Source: Polytrichum commune (Eukaryota; Streptophyta; Polytrichopsida; Polytrichales; Polytrichaceae). Taken from it: a stretch of 64,000 nt of DNA. Each line of letters opens with the position of its first letter. The stretch's first letter is position 1. The notes beneath the pieces were generated by a model, which saw only the letters and a program-made list of their open reading frames with translations, made no database searches and had not been told where the DNA came from. The stretch is taken from assembly GCA_950295325.1 (NCBI GenBank), contig OX485805.1:28261501-28325500 (forward strand), in the 5' to 3' direction. Positions 1,652-59,002 of this stretch are shown here, one piece after another. The translations under genes and the position numbers were made by a program.

Positions 1652-3648
1652 CAACAATCAACATATAGGAGGTAAGTGACGTAAATGTCTCATGAGAGGT
1701 GGGTTGGGGCGAACCAATCCATACACTGGTTCCTTGGAGGCAAGGGTTTAGGCATCCAACAAGCAATGGGTGTATGGGTTAATTCACCCAAGTATGAGAA
1801 GTGGGGTAGTTGGGAAAAGTAACCATTTAAGACCCATCAACCTTGAGGAATGGTAGCAGTTGGTAACAACACACACTCTGCCACACTGGAATTGTGTGAT
1901 AGGAAAGCCTCACAGTGGGACGGTTGTCTTCTTCTTCCTTATAATTAACAAGTTGTTGTTGACGGTAAACACAATAACAATCAACATATAGGTGGTAAGT
2001 GACGTAGATGTCCCATAAGAAGTGGGTTGAGGCGAACCAACCTGTACGCTGGTTCCTTGGAGGCAAGGGTTCATGCATCCAACAAGAAACGAGTGTATGG
2101 GTTAGTTCGCCCAAATCTGAGAAGTGGGATAGTTGGGAAAAGTAACCATTTAAGACCCACACATCGACCGTGAGGAGTGGCAGCAACTGGTAACAACACA
2201 CACTCTGCCACACTAGAATTGTGTGATAGGAAAGGCTCACAGTAGTGAGAGGGCCGCCTTCTTCTTCTTCCTTATAATTAACAAGTTGTTGTTGACGGTA
2301 TCCACAATAACAATCAACATATAGGTGGTAAGTGACGTAGATGTCCCATGAGAAGTGGGCTGAGGCAAACCAACCTGTACGCTGGTTCTTTGGAAGCGAG
2401 GGTTTAGGCATCCAACAAGAAACGAGTGTATGGGTTAGTTCGCCCAAATCTGAAAAGTGGGGTAGTTGAGAAAAATAGCCATTTAAGACCCACACATTGA
2501 CCGTGAGGAGTGGCAGCAGCTGGTAACAACACACACTCTGCCACACTGGAATTGTGTACTAGGAAAGCCTCACAGTAGTGGGAGGGCCGTCTTCTTCTTC
2601 TTCTTCCTTATAATTAACAAGTTGTAGTTGACGGTAACCACAATAACAATCAACATATAAGTGGTAAGTGACGTAGATGTCCCATGAGAAGTGGGTTGAG
2701 GCGAACTAACCTGTACGTTGGTTCCTTGGAGGCAAGGGTTTAGGCATCCAACAAGAAACGAGTGTATGGGTTAGTTCGCCCAAATATGAAAAGTGGGGTA
2801 GTTGAGAAAAGTAACCATTTAAGACCCACACATCGACCGTGAGGAGTGGCAGTAGCTGGTAACAACACACATTCTGCCACACTGGAATTGTGTGATAGGA
2901 AAGGCTCACAGTAGTGAGAGGGCCGCCTTCTTCTTCTTCCTTATAATTAACAAGTTGTTGTTGACGGTATCCACAATAACAATCAACATATAGGTGGTAA
3001 GTGACGTAGATGTCCCATGAGAAGTGGGTTGAGACGAACTAACCTGCACGCCGGTTCCTTGGAGGCAAGGGTTTAGGCATCCAACAAGCAACGAGTGTAT
3101 GGGTTAGTTCGCCCAAATATGAGAAGTGGGGTAGTTGGGAAAAGTAACCATTTAAGACCCACACATCGACCTTGAGGAGTGGTAGCAGCTGGTAACAACA
3201 CACACACTCTGCCACACTGGAATTGTGTGATAGGAAAGCCTCACAGTAGTGGGAGGGCCGTCTTCTTCTTCTTCCTTATAATTAACAAGTTGTTGTTGGC
3301 GGTAGCCACAATAACAATCAACATATAAGTGGTAAGTGACGTAGATGCCCCATGAGAAGTGGGTTGGGATGAACCAACATATACGCTGGTTCCTTGGAGG
3401 CAAGGGTTTAGGCATCCAACAAGAAAGGAGTGTATGGGTTAGTTCGCCCAAATCTAAGAAGTGGGGTAGTTGGGAAAAGTAACCATTTAAGACCCACACA
3501 TCGACCATGAGGAGTGGCAGCAGCTGGTAACAACACACACTCTGCCACACTGGAATTGTGTGATAGGAAAGGCTCACAGTAGTGGGAGGGCCGTCTTCTT
3601 CTTCCTCCTTATAATTAACAAGTTGTAGTTGACGGTAGCCACAATGAC
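1652..3648. repeat. Tandem array, six units of about 335 bases, each holding a 93-base mini-element
   Basis: The motif TAAGTGACGTA recurs at about 1673, 1996, 2329, 2665, 2998 and 3333, giving spacings of 323, 333, 336, 333 and 335 bases. Every unit contains one copy of the 93-base inverted-repeat element described at 3026-3118 (copies start at 1701, 2024, 2357, 2693, 3026 and 3361). About 240 bases of other DNA separate them, including a (CTT)n stretch. The array therefore looks like tandem amplification of a locus that already carried the insertion. Most periods are multiples of three or nearly so, which explains the long repeated minus-strand frames here. These are not treated as genes. 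The array breaks off at about 3648 into unrelated sequence with a short CTG run. Confidence 0.92.
3026..3118 (+). mobile_element. 93-base MULE-like mini-MITE, array copy with exact 9-base duplication
   Basis: This short element is bounded by imperfect terminal inverted repeats (GGGTTGAGACGAACTAACC at the left, GGTTAGTTCGCCCAAAT at the right). It is flanked by perfect 9-base direct repeats, ATGAGAAGT, at 3017-3025 and 3119-3127. The core contains TTCCTTGGAGGCAAGGG and AGGCATCCAACAAG. Its relatives are the other five array units and the independent insertions at 43082-43174 and 45606-45700. A 9-base duplication is typical of Mutator-like elements, but the transposase that moved it is not in the window. 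It has no coding capacity. Confidence 0.8.
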
Positions 3649-13139: not shown

Positions 13140-14320
13140 GCATTTACTAATCATCTTGCACTAACTTGATCGCCTGTTTCGTGGCCTACGCGTTCCATGC
13201 AGAGTGAAAGTGCCCATTTAAGGCCCACTCACCTTAAACTTGTGTTCAATATCCTAGGAGAGATGGACGAAGAGCTAAGATCATCCATTGAAGGCCCTCT
13301 CTTAATTGTATCTAGTTCATCTTAAACTAACTTAATTGTGTGTTCCGTGGCCTACGCATTCCATGTAGAGTGAAAGTGGCCGTTTAAGGCCCACTCACCT
13401 TAAACTTGTGTTCAATATCCTAAGAGAGGTGGATTGAAGAGCTAAGATCATCCATTGAAGGCCTTCTCTTAACCTTATCTAGTTCATTTTGCACTAACTT
13501 AATCGCGTGTTCGTGGCCTATGCGTTCCGTGCAGAGTGAAAGTGGCCGTTTAAGGCCCACCCACCTTAAACTTGTGTTCAATATCCTAGGAGAGGTGGAT
13601 TGAAGAGCTAAGATCATCCGTTGAAGGCCCTCTCTTAACCTTATCTAGTTCATCTTGCACTAACTTAATCGCGTGTTCGTGGCCTATGTGTTCCGTGCAG
13701 AGTGAAAGTGGACGTTTAAGGCCCAATCACCTTAAACTTGTGTTTAATATCCTAGGAGAGAGATGGACGAAGAGCTAAGATCATCCATTGAAGGCCCTCT
13801 CTTAACCTTATCTAGTTCATCTTGCACTAACTTAATCACGTGTTCGTGGCCTACGTGTTCCGTGCAAAGTGAAAGTGGCCATTTAAGGCCCAATCACCTT
13901 AAACTTGTGTTTAATATCCTAGGAGAGAGATGGACGAAGAGCTAAGATCATCCATTGAAGGCCCTCTCTTAACCTTATCTAGTTCATCTTGCACTAACTT
14001 AATCACGTGTTCCGTGCAGAGTGAAAGTGGCCGTTTAAGGCCCGCTCACCTTAAACTCGTGTTCAATATCCTAGAAGAGAGATGGACGAAGAGCTAAGAT
14101 CATCCGTCGAAGGCCCTCTCTTAACCTCATCTAGTTCGTCTTGCACTAACTCAATCGCGTGCTTCGTGGCCTACGTGTTCCGTGCAGAGTGAAAGTGGCC
14201 ATTCAAGGCGTTACCCTCGGAGAGGCGGGCACCTTACTTACGTGGTTCCTTACCCGAGGAGAGGTGGGTTAAAGAGCTAAAAACTGTCCGTTTAAGGTCC
14301 TCTCTTAACCAACCACAGCT
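13140..14320. repeat. Tandem array, about seven units of 167 bases
   Basis: AGAGCTAAGATCATCC recurs at about 13271, 13438, 13604, 13771, 13938 and 14090, with a diverged AGAGCTAAAAACTGTCC at about 14274. Spacings are 167, 166, 167, 167, 152 and 184 bases. The 152-base step lacks the GTGGCCTACG block. The unit includes GAGTGAAAGTGGCCGTTTAAG and TCTAGTTCATCTTGCAC. Single diverged relatives of the unit occur at the right ends of the dispersed repeats at 36110-36190 and 50790-50850. Confidence 0.9.
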
Positions 14321-23139: not shown

Positions 23140-24230
23140 TGGACAACTCCAACTTGAAACCCTCTTTCAATCTTTTTAATGTTATTTCTCATATTATCTG
23201 CCATACCAACCGTTGCCTCAAATAACCTCGTCTTGGCCTGAGATTCTTGATTGGTGCACCACTTCTCTAATGTAATCTAAACCGACCCTTAGAGGTTCAT
23301 GTCGGCCCACATAGTACATCAATATGGCATGTCCGTGGTGGCCGACCAGCTGGCTATTTGATGACAAAGAGAGGACAATTTGAAATACGGTCCGGCAAGG
23401 GGGCCGGACAACTCCAACTTGAAACCTTCTTTCTTTCTTTTTGATGCTTCTTCCCATATTATTTGCCATACCAACTATTGCCTCAAATAACCTCGTCTTG
23501 GCTGTGATTCTCGACCTGTGATTCTCTACCGACATGTGCACCACTTCTTCAGCGTAGTCTAACCCGGCCCTTAGAGGTTCATGTCGGCCCATGTAACACA
23601 GTAGTATGGCCTATCAGGGGTGGCCGGCCAGTTGGGTATTTGATGACAAAGAGAGGACAATTTGAAATACGGTCCGGCGGGGGGCCATACAACTCCAACT
23701 TGAAACTTTTTTTTTTTGATGTTTCTTCCCATATTATATGCCATACCAACCATTGCCTCAAATAACCTCGTCTTGGCCTAGGATTCTTGACCGACTGGTG
23801 CACTTCTTCACCACCGTAGTCTAAACCGGCCTTTAAAGGTTCACGCATGTCGGCCCGTGTAACACAATAGTATGGTCTGTCAAGAGTGGCCGGGCGGCTA
23901 ACTGTTTGACGACAAAAAAAGGGACAATTTGAAATACGGGGGGGGAGGGGGGTGGTGGGATACAACCCCGACTTGAAACTCCCTTTCTTTCTTTTTGATG
24001 TTTCTTCCCATATTATCTACCATACCAACCGTTGCGTCAAATAACCTCATCTTGGCCTGAGATTCTTGACCGACCGATGCACTTCTTCTTCACCGTAGTC
24101 TAACCCCGGCCCTTAGAAGTTCATGTCTTCATGTCGGCCCGTGTAACACTACTGTATGGCCTGTCGGGGGTGGCCGGCTGTTTGATGACAAAGAGAGGAC
24201 AATTTGAAATATGGTCCGGCCGCGCGGGGG
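23140..24230. repeat. Tandem array, about four units of 267-282 bases
   Basis: GGACAATTTGAAAT recurs at about 23373, 23655, 23922 and 24197. Each unit has CATACCAACCATTGCCTCAA, TAACCTCGTCTTGGCC, TTCATGTCGGCCC, a GGTGGCCGG block and a polypyrimidine TTTCTTTCTTTTTGATG. Units differ by several small indels and by G-tract length after GGTCCGGC. The minus-strand frames across it are repeat artefacts. Confidence 0.88.
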
Positions 24231-24275
24231 GTGTTGAGCTTATGATGATGCGCTTTACCTTACCCTCCCTTCCCT

Positions 24276-29279: not shown

Positions 29280-30001
29280 AGGCCACCTCACACACGAGCC
29301 AAGAGCCGTGACCATGAAATTGTGAGAGCCCAAAAGAAAGTGCCCCGAGGTCGTCCCAAGACACCTCCAAAATCATGTATTGTTGCCACGGATCCTCAAG
29401 TGTAGTGTGAAGCCATATGTGACTGGGCCCTCAACCAAATGCTATTTCAATGAATATCTATTCATGCAGGTCCTCACACATGATAAAATAGAATAAATCA
29501 ATGGTTGTGAGCATTCGGAGTGCCATGGTCTCCCGGTTTTGCGTTAGACCTACCTCCAAGAAGTGGTTTTTGAAAATAGTCCAAGTGACCATGAAACATG
29601 ATCCATTCGATGTTAGGTAGGATCCATGTAGACTTTTACATCCTTCTTGCATTCACATACTCGGTTGGTCCCTCAAGCGTGGTGTGAAGCGAACTTGGAC
29701 CAACTCCGCCTTTTCCACCAATGAGAGTGCTTGAAGTGTGATGGTCACATGCTCTCATTCTCATGTGTGGCCTACCTCCAAGAGGTGGTTTTTGAAAATA
29801 ATCCAAGTGATCATGAAACATGATTCATTCAATGCCATGTAGAAGTCCACATAGACTTTAACATCCATCTTGCATTCACATACTCCGTTGGCCCCTCCAA
29901 CGTAGTGAGAAGCAAACTTGGACCGCCTCCGCCTTTACCACCAATGAGAGTGCTTGAAGTGTAGCGGTCACGGGCTCTCAGCCTCATGTGTGAAGTGGCC
30001 C
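29280..30001 (+). mobile_element. Tourist/PIF-Harbinger-like MITE with internal duplication
   Basis: The left end GGCCACCTCACACACGAG and right end CTCATGTGTGAAGTGGCCC are flanked by TAA (29277-29279 and 30002-30004). The interior follows 43628-44138 (GAGAGCCCAAAAGAAAGTG, TTGTGAGCATTCGGAGTG, GGTTTTTGAAAATAGTCC, CTTGGACC...CCGCC). The section from CCTACCTCCAAGA through CACCAATGAGAGTGCTTGAA is present twice (about 29545-29720 and 29768-29960), making this copy longer than the 511-base form. TWA duplications with GGSCC ends are the PIF-Harbinger signature. Confidence 0.8.
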
Positions 30002-30908
30002 TAAATACCATAAGGAGAGCAGTAGCAACAGCCCCAACAACAACACAACGGTGGTCCCTCGAGCGTAGTGGGAAGCGAACTTGGACCGGCTCTGCCTTTT
30101 CCACCAATGAGAGTGCTCGAAGTGTAGTGGTCCCGGGCTCTCAGCCTCAGGTGTGAAGTGGCCCTAAATACCATAAGGAGAGCAGTAGCAACAGCCACAA
30201 CAACAAAACAACGGTGGTCCCTCAAGTGTAGTGGGAAGCAAACTTGGACTGGCTCTACCTTTACCACCAATACCACAACAACAAAACAATGGTGGCCCCT
30301 CAAACATGGTGGGAAGCGAACTTAGACCGGCTCCGCCTTTCCACTAATGAGAGTGCTTGAAGTGTAGCAGTCACGGGCTCTCAGTCTCATGTGTGAAGTG
30401 GCCCTAAATACCATAAGGAGAGCAGTAGCAACAACCACAACAACAACACAACGGTGGTCCCTCAAGCATAGTGGGAAGCGTACTTGGACCCGGCTCCGCC
30501 TTTTCCACCAATGAGAGTGCTTGAAGTGTAGCGGTCACGGGCTCTCAGCCTCATGTGTGAAGTGGCCCTAAATACCATAAGGAGAGCAGTAGCAACAACC
30601 ACAACAACAAAAGAACGGTGGTCCCTCAAGCGTAGTGGAAAGCGAACTTGGACCGGCTCCGCCTTTTCCACCAATGAGAGTGCTTGAAGTGTAGCGGTCA
30701 CGGGCTCTCAGCCTCATGTGTGAAGTGGCCCTAAATACCATAAGGAGAGCAGTAGCAACAGCCACAACAACAAAAGAATGGTGGTCCCTCAAGCGTAGTG
30801 GAAAGCGAACTTGGACCGGCTCCGCCTTTTCCACCAATGAGAGTGCTTGAAGTGTAGTGGTCACGGGCTCTCAGCCACATGTGTGAAGTGGCCCTAAATA
30901 CCATAAGG
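30002..30908. repeat. Tandem array of 163-base units made of MITE end plus flank
   Basis: CCCTAAATACCATAAGGAGA starts at about 29999, 30162, 30402, 30566, 30729 and 30892. Spacings are 163, 240, 164, 163 and 163 bases, the 240-base step containing a partial extra copy. Each unit joins about 50 bases of flank (AGCAGTAGCAACA...CAACAACA) to the last 110-115 bases of the MITE (GTGGTCCCTCAAGCGTAGTG to CTCATGTGTGAAGTGGCCC). The minus-strand frames at 29829-30864 are artefacts of this repeat. Confidence 0.92.
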
Positions 30909-30918
30909 AGACCAGTAA

Positions 30919-41860: not shown

Positions 41861-43081
41861 ATTACTTGATTTAACACCTCTTTATGTTAGTGTTTGATAT
41901 ACATCGCATGACCATGCTTTTAACACTTTCGTTGGATTTTTGGTGGTGCTCTTTATACATTTGGCCCCTCTAAAACGGTGTAGTAGAAGGTTCTCCAAAA
42001 TAGGTGAATTGACCAAAATGTTGTTGAGTGCTAAGCCTTATTATTATGCTCCTCCATGCCTCCTCAAAAATATACTTGCAACTCCTTCTCTTTGTGGACA
42101 TTAAAGGTGTGTATCCCCATGGATGTGTGAACATGTAGAGAGACTACTTTCCTCTAAGTTGAAGTTATCATATTTAACACCCTCTCATGTTGGTTATTGG
42201 TGTACAATGTGTGGTCATGCCCTTATCATGTTTTATTTATACTTCTTGGTAATGTTTTATACCCACGGTCCATCCGATATGGTCCCATTGGAGATTCTCC
42301 AAATCGAGTGGATCAATCAAAATGATGTAGACTCGTAAGCCTTAAGGTATTTGGCTCCTTTGACCCCTTCACATGGATACACCCTCACTTCCAAAATGGC
42401 AACCTCCATAATGCCACTCCCTCTCTTATATCCCAACACCATAGGGAACGAATGTGCACAGTTGAAATCTCCGTCCTTGTTGTTACATTTCCTTTCCATA
42501 TATCACAACTTTTGATACAAAAATCATGTGCTCACACGCATTGCATTGTCATCATTGTCATTATTGCAATGTTGATTTTTTGTTATTTCATTATGTCACA
42601 TGCTACACTAATCATCTATTATCTTTCATCCATGTTAACACTACAAATCTCTTTAATATCACATGCACTTTGGTTGCCATAGGCATGATATTAGGGAGGT
42701 TAGAGTGTACTTAGGGCATCTCTCGGGGTTCTCGTATATATCCCATACATGGTTAATACAACGGTTGCTTGCACGTACATGGTCGGATACATTGTTCTTT
42801 ACCCCACTTGGCGGCGCCATGAAAACATTGCATGTTGGGAGCATTACACAAATGTATAGGGAGGACAAACCATTCACTCAAAACACATGTAGATTTGTGC
42901 AGGGCTGCAAAGGAGGTCCTCAGTACTGGGTATGTGTATTATGTGTAGTTTGCCCACGACACAAATGTCGTTTAGGGAGATGCGTGGGACCAAAAATAGA
43001 CACTCTTTTCAATCCCGCCTTTCCCTGGTCCATTGCTACAACAATTGTTAGTGCATGCGCATGGAAATGCCCTTCTAACAC

Positions 43082-43174
43082 GGCTGAGGCGAAACAACCC
43101 GCACATTGGTTCCTTGGAGGCAAGGGTCTAGGCATCCAACAAGGAACGAGTATATGGGTTGGTTCGCCCAATCC
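43082..43174 (+). mobile_element. 93-base MULE-like mini-MITE, solo copy
   Basis: Starts GGCTGAGGCGAAACAACCC and ends GGGTTGGTTCGCCCAATCC, which pair as imperfect inverted repeats. The core TTCCTTGGAGGCAAGGG...AGGCATCCAACAAG is the same as in the array at 1652-3648. The flanks are TTCTAACAC (43073-43081) and TCCTAACAC (43175-43183), eight of nine identical. Confidence 0.8.
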
Positions 43175-43393
43175 TCCTAACACCTCCCTAATACACCGAA
43201 CGTAAAAGACATGCAACCCTCTCATGTGTGAAACATATACAATATCTACACTTTTAAAATGAAAGTTCCCCAAACCAATTCAATACCCCTTTGTGTAATT
43301 CATGCATGGTGGACAACGTGTGGTCATTCATGCCACCCTAATAATGTTTTCCTCAGTTTTCTGGTGGCCTCCACTACACACCTCTTTGTTGTT

Positions 43394-45339: not shown

Positions 45340-45840
45340 ATGCTTTGCTTGAATCATAAAATAAACAAGAAACCTTCATTATAGAAACACGAACGGTAAC
45401 CCCCCAAAAAAGGATGATGTTAGTCAACACTAGCATTTACCTCCTCGATACATGGGTTACATAGACATCATAAACCCCAAGCCCATTATATGAGACCCTC
45501 ATCACGAAAACATGAACAACACCCCCCCCCCCAAAAAAAATGTGATACTAGTTCAACACTCGCATTTACCTCCCCAATGAATGAGCCTACATAGACATCA
45601 TGAACGGGTTGGGGCGAAACAACCCGTACGCTGATTCCTTGGAGGCAAGAGTTTAGGCATCCAACAAGAAACGAGTGTATGGGTTGGTTCGCCTGAACCC
45701 ATCATGAACCCGAAGCCCATTATATGATATCCTCATTATAGATACACGAATGATATCAGGCAAAAAAAACGACACCCATCCAACGTCGCCTTTTACCTTC
45801 CCCGTCCCGTGGATGGGTTTACATTGACACCGTGAACCCC
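45340..45840. repeat. Tandem array, three diverged units of about 130 bases
   Basis: GACATCATAAACC, GACATCATGAAC and GACACCGTGAACCC begin at 45464, 45594 and 45826. The second interval is 232 bases, but 128 after removing the 104 bases contributed by the mini-element and its duplication, against 130 for the first. Units share CAACACTAGCATTTACCTCC, CCCATTATATGA and CTCAT(T/C)A blocks. C tracts lie in unit 2 and at 45837-45851. Confidence 0.8.
45606..45700 (+). mobile_element. 95-base MULE-like mini-MITE, solo copy with empty-site comparison
   Basis: Inverted ends GGGTTGGGGCGAAACAACCC and GGGTTGGTTCGCCTGAACCC, flanked by exact ATCATGAAC at 45597-45605 and 45701-45709. The neighbouring array unit at 45464 lacks the insertion and reads ATCATAAAC once, followed by the same CC(C/G)AAGCCCATTATATGA, so it acts as an unoccupied site. 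This is the clearest evidence that the family is a real mobile element. Confidence 0.88.
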
Positions 45841-50902: not shown

Positions 50903-52110
50903 GACCATGTTTCGAAGAAGAATAACCCTCCTTTGATTATGAGATTCCCCATTTTTGGGGAGCACTCAGGCTATGTACCGTGGAGTTTTTGACAAAGCAA
51001 TTATGAATGCAAAGTTTTCTTTTCTTTTTTAACACAACCTCTTTCTTTGGAAAAAAATCATCATCTAGTTGCTTAGTAATGTTATGACTGTAAATCATAT
51101 CTTCTCGCAACCCTTAGTCACATGTGTAAGAAGTAGCTCTAAACAACACACTTACATGGTGTGATAAGTTAGTGTAGTATGACTTTGTGTGTGTGTGAGA
51201 GAGGGACCATGTTTCAGACAAGAATAACTCTCCTTCAATCAAGGGATTCCATGGTTATGGAGAACACTTAGGGTGTGTACTGTGGAGTTTTTGACAAACA
51301 ATTATAAATTCATATATTCAAAATTTCAGTTTCACGCAACCTTTTTCTTATTCGGAAAAAGACCATTGTCTAGCTGCTTAGTAATGTTATGACCGTAAAT
51401 CATATCTTCTCACGGCCCTTGGTCACGTGTGTAAAAACGTCTCTAAACACTACACTTACACAATGTGTAATAAGTTAGTATAGTTTGTGTTTGTGTTTGT
51501 GTTTGTGTGTGTGTGTGGGGGGGGGGGAGGGGGAGACCATGTTTCGATCAAGAATAACCCTCCTTTAATTAAGGGATTCCATGTTAATGGGGAGCACTTA
51601 GGTTGTGTACTGTAAAGTTTTAGAATTGGAATTTAACGCAACCTCTTTCTTAATGGGAAAGAGACCATCGTGTAACTGCTTAATTAGTGATGTTATGACC
51701 ATAAACCCTATCTTTCTCACGGCCCTTGGTCCTATGTGTAAAAATGGCTCTAAGCACTACACTTACACAATGTGTAATAAATTAGTATAATATGACTTTG
51801 TGTTTTTGTTTATGTTTGTGTGTGTGTGTGTGTGTGTGTGTGGGGAGACCATGTTTCGATCAAGAATAACCCTCCTTTAATTAAGGGATTCCATGTTAAT
51901 GGGGAGCACTCAAACTGTGTACTGTAAAGTTTTAGAATTGGAGTTGAACACAACCTCTTTCTTAATGGGAAAGAGACCATCGTGTAGCTGCTTAATTAGT
52001 GATGTTATGACCGTAAACCCTATGTTTCTCACGGCATTTGGTCCCGTGGTGTAAAAGCGGCGCTAAACACTACACTTACATGGGGTGTAATAAGTTAGTG
52101 GAGTGTGACT
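50903..52110. repeat. Tandem array, four units of 302-330 bases
   Basis: GACCATGTTTCG(A) begins units at about 50903, 51205, 51535 and 51847. Each has AGAATAACCCTCCTTTAATT, GGGATTCCATGTTAATGGGG, CAACCTCTTTCTTAATGGG, TGTTATGACC and CACTACACTTACA. The joint between units carries a (TG)n/G tract that differs each time (G11 at 51517-51527; (TG)n at about 51817-51841), which accounts for the length differences. The array ends about 800 bases upstream of the HD-Zip start codon. Confidence 0.9.
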
Positions 52111-52189
52111 TTGTGTGGTGTCAACCGAGTAGTTGGGAGGGACATATAGTGGTAGTGTAGGCATGAGTAAAGTAGCAGCCTACCTACCG

Positions 52190-57890: not shown

Positions 57891-57944
57891 CGTCGGTGAG
57901 AGGAACATACAAATGTAACACTCTACATGTGATTTGGCAGATTT

Positions 57945-58690
57945 ACAAATGTACCATTCTCATAGATTTTGCAGATTTTTCAACGAAGTTCGACAATTTT
58001 CTCAAAGACAAAGGTGAACAGTCCATGACTTGTATGCTTGTAGTGGATGGATGGAAGGTCTTTGGTGAGAGAAATATACAAATGTACCACTTTGATAGAT
58101 CTCGCAAAATTTTCAATGACGTAGGACAATTTCTCAAATATGAAGGTCAATTGCTCATGACTCGTATGCTTGTAATGGATGGAGGGATGGAGAGAAATAT
58201 ACAAATGTACCACTTTGATAGATCTCGCAAATTTTTCAATGACGTAGGACAATTTCTCAAATACGAAGGTCAATTGCTCATGACTCGTATGCTTGTAATG
58301 GATGGAGGGATGGAGAGAAATATACAAATGTACCACTTTGATAGATCTCGCAAATTTTTCAATGACGTAGGACAATTTCTCAAATACGAAGGTCAATTGC
58401 TCATGACTCGTATGCTTGTAATGGATGGAGGGATGGAGAGAAATACACAAATGTACCACTTTGATAGATCTCGCATGATTTTCAATGCCGTAGGACAATT
58501 TCTCAAAGATGAAGGTCGATTGCCCAAGACTCATATGCTTGTAGTGGATGGATGGAAGGTCATCGGTGAGAGAGATATACAAATGTACCATGTTGATAGA
58601 TCTCGCAGGATTTTCAATGACGTAGGACAATTTATCAAAGACGAAGGTCGATTGCCCAAGACTCATATGCTTGTGGTGGATGGATGGAAG
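57945..58690. repeat. In-phase minisatellite, six units of 123 or 132 bases
   Basis: AATGTACCACTTTGATAGAT-type starts lie at 57949, 58081, 58204, 58327, 58450 and 58582, spacings 132, 123, 123, 123 and 132. All are multiples of three, so frames stay open on both strands (about 960 bases plus, 765 minus). Units 2-4 are almost identical. Variation is by 9-base steps and scattered substitutions. The plus frame has no ATG at its left end and no known domain, so it is treated as a repeat. A (CT)n(TA)n tract follows at 58711-58745, and a (GATA)n run at about 58877-58893. Confidence 0.88.
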
Positions 58691-59002
58691 GAAGGAAACA
58701 AGGCACACCTCTCTCTCTCTCTTTATATATATATATATATACACATATCACTATTCCATCTCTTCTACGTACGGTTCATGGGCAAGTGGGTTTCTTCACG
58801 AAGGCTTCATAGGAACCTTCCCTCGACCACCTTTTCGTGTTTCCGTAAATGTTGATGCATCTATCTATATATATACATAGATAGATAGATAGATGTAGTG
58901 GTGGGAATGTGTCTGTCTACCTGCCTGCCTCCCTGCCCATGTTGCAATGATTGAGCAAATGATTTGGCCATTCCCATACGAATAGTCGCCCCACCGAACA
59001 GT

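What the first reader, a model, noticed from the sequence alone, without database searches (positions are those of the whole stretch)
45606..45700. A 93-95-base mobile element family with 9-base target duplications
Seen: three independent genomic contexts carry the same short core between imperfect inverted ends, each flanked by a different 9-base direct repeat: ATGAGAAGT (3017/3119), TTCTAACAC/TCCTAACAC (43073/43175) and ATCATGAAC (45597/45701). At 45340-45840 the adjacent array unit provides an empty site with one copy of the target. Known: 9-base duplications are typical of Mutator-like elements. Inference: at under 100 bases this is unusually small for a cut-and-paste element, leaving little beyond the two transposase-binding ends and a roughly 50-base conserved core. 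The core is as conserved as the ends, which hints that it may matter.
Basis: partly seen in the sequence, partly recalled or inferred. Interest (0 to 1): 0.75.

Follow-up and report, generated by a model that had tools for sequence, protein, structure and literature searches.

The report
Tiny 93-base plant transposon family
This is a real, short, non-coding jumping-DNA family with over a thousand copies in what is probably a plant genome; it looks like a Mutator-type miniature transposon, unusually small but of a known kind.

Summary
The window lies in a 407.8-Mb genome, probably a land plant. It carries eight copies of a 93-bp element: two singletons (43082-43174, 45607-45699) and six in a 333-bp tandem array, counted as one insertion. 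Genome-wide, the 34-nt centre with up to 2 mismatches occurs 1242 times; the reversed control gives 0. Of 68 independent copies, 51 show a target duplication, nearly always 9 bp (23) or 10 bp (25); shuffled flanks average 0.8. Related repeats give empty sites, and one copy sits inside another. The ends are 35-bp inverted repeats, 30/35 identical.

Best reading: a Mutator-type MITE. Mutator membership rests on duplication length and inverted ends only; no longer element with the same ends was found. The 413-478-bp versions are 93-mers interrupted by another transposon.

The hint that the core "may matter" fails: in copies chosen by their ends, the core diverges 4.3% at non-CpG sites, against 5.5% and 3.7% in the inner arms.

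Verdict: real, small for its group, ordinary in kind.

The parts
45607..45699 (+). 93-bp element (the copy in the finding)
   Evidence: alignment to family consensus, 9 mismatches
45607..45641 (+). left inverted arm, 35 bp
   Evidence: read from the consensus: 30 of 35 positions match the right arm inverted (sequence)
45642..45664 (+). 23-bp centre
   Evidence: not more conserved than the inner arms in end-selected copies
45665..45699 (+). right inverted arm, 35 bp
   Evidence: as for the left arm
45596..45605 (.). target duplication CATCATGAAC, left copy
45700..45709 (.). target duplication CATCATGAAC, right copy
45400..45502 (.). neighbouring array unit without the insert (empty site)
   Evidence: aligns across the joined flanks
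43082..43174 (+). second singleton copy
   Evidence: 8 mismatches to consensus, 8 of 9 duplication bases match
43073..43081 (.). target duplication TTCTAACAC, left copy
43175..43183 (.). target duplication TCCTAACAC, right copy
1702..1794 (+). copy in tandem array, unit 1
2025..2117 (+). copy in tandem array, unit 2
2358..2450 (+). copy in tandem array, unit 3
2694..2786 (+). copy in tandem array, unit 4
3027..3119 (+). copy in tandem array, unit 5, with TGAGAAGTG at 3018-3026 and 3120-3128
3362..3454 (+). copy in tandem array, unit 6
1653..3645 (.). 333-bp tandem array, 6.0 units, each with one copy of the element

Best explanation
It is a non-autonomous cut-and-paste DNA transposon, a miniature inverted-repeat element (MITE) of Mutator type. 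Shown: a unit of nearly constant size (93 bp in 69 of 80 aligned copies), 35-bp inverted ends around a 23-bp centre, 9-10-bp target duplications, empty sites, insertion into another copy of itself, and over a thousand dispersed matches. Inferred: a Mutator-family transposase made elsewhere binds the two arms, excises the unit and inserts it at a 9-10-bp staggered cut, which repair turns into the direct repeats. The element is too short to encode a transposase; it leaves room for two binding arms and a short spacer. Four exact consensus copies and 37 within 2 mismatches, beside many more diverged ones, suggest one main wave that tailed off fairly recently. Its transposase source has not been identified.
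For: 1242 core matches on both strands about equally, control 0. 51 of 68 independent copies with duplications against 0.8 by shuffling; flank agreement above background only at offsets 9 and 10 (50 copies, tandem ones included). Empty sites: neighbouring array unit; related repeats for L066 and L036, and with small gaps L027. Insertion into itself in L005 with duplication CCTAAACCC. Size: 69 of 80 copies are 93 bp; one place only with a 75-105-base gap between the ends. Mutator MITEs of plants are described as having 9-10-bp duplications (PMC3991616, passage). The genome has at least 142 MULE-domain matches.
Against: No longer element with the same ends was found, so no transposase is tied to it. 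The MULE-bearing element that was read has no similar ends. 17 of 68 copies lack a clear duplication, though some of these are only 1-2 mismatches from consensus. 10-bp duplications are as frequent as 9-bp ones, and in 5 of 26 of the 10-offset class the base next to the element does not match, so one boundary is uncertain by a base. Relatedness to known Mutator ends was not tested.
Confidence: 0.83

Rival explanations
1. A miniature transposon mobilised by a superfamily other than Mutator, including an undescribed one, that makes 9-10-bp duplications.
For: No Mutator element with these ends was found; duplication length alone does not name the enzyme.
Against: Of the plant MITE superfamilies listed in PMC3991616 (passage), only Mutator is given 9-10 bp; hAT has 5, 6 or 8, Stowaway and Tourist 2-3.
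Confidence: 0.12
2. The unit is only a segment of a larger repeat spread by segmental or tandem duplication.
For: Six window copies and the six copies in L035 lie in tandem arrays.
Against: Flanks differ between the dispersed copies and form their own duplications in 51 of 68; empty sites exist.
Confidence: 0.02
3. A structured RNA or retroposed small RNA gene.
For: Copies fold well on both strands, z from -2.0 to -7.8 with flanks included.
Against: The fold follows from the inverted arms. No Rfam match at gathering score in the window, and one chance-like match (E 0.22) on the element. No A-rich tail, nearly constant duplication length, centre not specially conserved.
Confidence: 0.02

Closest known systems
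Mutator-like MITEs of plants (carrot set, PMC8227079; MDM-1, MDM-2 and Imcrop of rice known here only from reference lists)
   Same: Inverted ends, 9-10-bp duplications, no coding sequence, hundreds to thousands of dispersed copies.
   Different: Carrot Mutator MITEs average 429 bp and their largest family has 542 copies (passages); this unit is 93 bp with 1242 core matches. No autonomous partner found.
Foldback element Tetris of Drosophila virilis (PMC4079207, abstract and outline seen)
   Same: Mostly inverted repeat, apparently non-autonomous, linked with tandem arrays.
   Different: Tetris has ~220-bp internal tandem repeats; this element has none, and its arrays hold one element per unit.
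Other plant MITE superfamilies (Stowaway, Tourist, hAT-like)
   Same: Short inverted-repeat, non-coding elements.
   Different: Their duplications are given as TA, TAA and 5/6/8 bp (passage), not 9-10 bp.

Membership tests
MITE (non-autonomous inverted-repeat DNA transposon) | short unit with terminal inverted repeats and no coding capacity | tested here: met
   93 bp in 69 of 80 aligned copies; arms 30/35 identical, read from the consensus
MITE (non-autonomous inverted-repeat DNA transposon) | target duplications of consistent length and empty sites | tested here: met
   51 of 68 with duplications, 48 of them 9 or 10 bp; empty sites
MITE (non-autonomous inverted-repeat DNA transposon) | high copy number of near-uniform size | tested here: met
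   1242 core matches; one place with a 75-105-base gap between the ends
Mutator (MULE) superfamily | 9-10-bp target duplication | tested here: met
   23 of 9 bp, 25 of 10 bp among 51
Mutator (MULE) superfamily | ends shared with a transposase-bearing Mutator element | tested here: inconclusive
   exact subterminal patterns found none; only one MULE-bearing element was read, of 142 matches listed; diverged ends would be missed
Mutator (MULE) superfamily | mobilised by a Mutator transposase | not testable with these tools
   needs a transposition assay
Structured RNA family | match to a curated covariance model | tested here: not met
   0 matches at gathering score in the window; one sub-threshold match, E 0.22

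The most novel reading that the evidence does not exclude
A family held at 93 bp, with two 35-bp arms almost touching and no larger relative in its genome, nevertheless reached over a thousand copies. It would be an orphan at or near the minimum length that a Mutator-type (or undescribed) transposase can mobilise, moved in trans by an enzyme whose own ends no longer look alike.
Probability: 0.3. Interest if true: 0.45.

Novelty: new member of a known kind. Interest (0 to 1): 0.27.

Why it matters
It adds a very compact, high-copy Mutator-type MITE that is easy to recognise and genotype. Its near-constant 93-bp length and nearly abutting arms bear on how close two transposase-binding ends can lie. 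Its copies also record later events: tandem amplification after insertion, and repeated hits by another transposon at one site.

Tried and rejected
Known structured RNA: rejected. Rfam gave nothing at gathering score over the window and one match at E 0.22 on the element.

Cargo-bearing long form: rejected. The 413-478-bp versions (L071, L073, L075, L076, L078) first looked like longer relatives (my note says so). The extra DNA has its own inverted ends and, as I read it, a TA duplication, and sits at the same TA in both orientations, so these are independent later insertions. L072 is a 93-mer split by a piece with an 8-bp duplication and a transposase-like stretch (hAT-like by my reading; no family search run). 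L074 is split by an element with a 3-bp duplication.

Autonomous partner: not found; 8 hits, control 0; five are the nested cases above, the other three are L072, L074 and L077 (rearranged); 14 hits against 3 in the control; about ten read as indel variants of the family, four do not; none lies within 100 kb of a MULE match listed, by my reading of the coordinates; 3 hits against 4 in the control. Two copies of one MULE-bearing element were compared: 99.6-99.7% identical over about 9.7 kb, no long inverted ends seen, and no match to the 93-mer longer than 11 exact bases in L079. The other MULE places were not examined.

Conserved core: rejected. That count used 52 of the 61 elements visible's truncated list; 9 with length differences were left out. 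The 1.0% core divergence is biased by choice of copies.

Copies dropped before the count of 68, from 80 aligned: 5 of 6 units of the window array, 5 of 6 copies of L035, L072 (misaligned) and L077 (rearranged). In one search, 15 further hits were partial and 7 were places fetched twice.

Literature: six searches of the held library. No title or abstract start listed describes this element or a sub-100-bp Mutator MITE. The library lacks most subscription papers, so this does not show absence. Species not identified.

Full report
What is there. The window is part of contig C3 (28261501-28325500) of a 407.8-Mb genome in 64 contigs; contigs C1-C7 are 42-78 Mb long. An open frame at 52.8 kb reads like a plant HD-Zip protein (my reading of the translation; no family search run), so the host is probably a land plant; no tool named the species. 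The window holds eight copies of a 93-bp element: two singletons (43082-43174, 45607-45699) and six in the units of a 333-bp tandem array (1653-3645).

Family. A search with the window copy gave 54 matches, with 40 of 1664 first-look candidates scored. The 34-nt centre with up to 2 mismatches occurs 623 times on one strand and 619 on the other; the reversed control gives 0. The full 93-base consensus occurs 4 times exactly and 37 times within 2 mismatches, control 0. The mean mismatch to consensus in 68 fetched copies is 4.2%, median 4 bases; that sample favours good copies.

Anatomy. The consensus begins GGYTGGGGCGAAMCAACCCGTACACTGGTTCCTTG and ends CAAGGAACGAGTGTATGGGTTGGTTCGCCCAAATC. The two 35-base arms match at 30 of 35 positions as inverted repeats (read directly), leaving a 23-base centre. 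Three copies folded with their flanks form hairpins on both strands, z from -2.0 to -7.8, as such arms must. Rfam has no match at gathering score.

Target duplications. Pooled over 50 copies, tandem ones included, left and right flanks agree above background only at offsets of 9 and 10 bases. After collapsing tandem copies, 51 of 68 insertions reach a duplication score that 500 shuffles of the right flanks reach in a mean of 0.8 and at most 5 of 68. Lengths: 23 of 9, 25 of 10, 2 of 11, 1 of 12; 26 perfect ones (12 of 9, 14 of 10). 17 have none that is clear. In the 10-offset class, the base next to the element matched in 21 and not in 5 of 26, so the left boundary is uncertain by one base in some copies.

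Empty sites. For the named copy, the neighbouring array unit lacks the insert and has one target copy. Repeats related to the flanks of L066 and L036 run cleanly across the junction; for L027 there are small gaps at the junction; L064 and L048 align less well. L005 is an insertion into another copy of the same family with duplication CCTAAACCC; uninterrupted copies of the family serve as the empty site.

Size and longer relatives. 69 of 80 aligned copies are exactly 93 bp; the rest are 89-96 bp, or 100 in the misaligned L072. Copies with both outer ends intact and a 42-72-base gap: 155 matches on each strand, many of them one element read both ways because the pattern is nearly symmetrical. 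With a 75-105-base gap there is one place, apparently rearranged. Ends followed by different sequence gave 8 places. Five are 93-mers interrupted at one TA by another inverted-repeat transposon; some of these inserts lie in opposite orientation (L071 against L076, L073 against L075), which shows independent insertion. Two other copies of that transposon with readable ends lie at other TA-GT sites (L074, L009). The remaining three are L072 and L074 (93-mers split by other elements) and L077 (rearranged). Shorter terminal patterns gave mainly family variants (four of 14 not obviously so, control 3) or chance-level hits (3 against 4 in the control). The genome has at least 142 MULE-domain matches. 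One element, in two near-identical copies, was read and has no related ends. The partner is unknown.

Core. In copies selected by their outer ends, non-CpG divergence is 43/780 in the inner left arm, 51/1196 in the core and 29/780 in the inner right arm (52 of 61 visible elements). The core is not specially constrained.

Mechanism. Inferred from general knowledge of MITEs: a transposase made elsewhere recognises the arms and inserts the unit by cut and paste with a 9-10-bp stagger. A paper on Brassica MITEs lists 9-10-bp duplications for Mutator MITEs (PMC3991616, passage).

Comparison. Carrot Mutator MITEs average 429 bp (PMC8227079, passages). In a survey of 207 plant genomes, average MITE length by plant group is 156.3-251.2 bp, and Mutator types make up 41.5% of MITEs (PMC12550479, passages). 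This element is therefore at the small end of a well-known kind.

Verdict. A real, very short Mutator-type MITE with some nearly identical copies; new member of a known kind.

Noticed in passing
L071, L073, L075, L076, L078 (about 1500-1930 or 1050-1530 in each): Another inverted-repeat transposon (ends ACACTAAATA or ACACAAAATA) is inserted at the same TA of the 93-mer in five copies, in both orientations; other copies lie at similar TA-GT sites.
   Followed up: partly
L035, 996-1670; window 1653-3645: The element is locked into tandem arrays (about 113-bp and 333-bp units), so insertions have been amplified with their flanks.
   Followed up: partly
L072, about 379-1530: A 93-mer split by about 1 kb with an 8-bp duplication and a stretch that reads like a hAT transposase end (my reading).
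   Followed up: no
window 13151-14209, 23143-24233, 29549-30917, 51330-52116, 57944-58692: Several other tandem arrays with long units (78-404 bp) in one 64-kb window.
   Followed up: no
L079+L081 and L080+L082: Two copies, 99.6-99.7% identical over about 9.7 kb, of a MULE-domain-bearing element without evident long inverted ends.
   Followed up: partly
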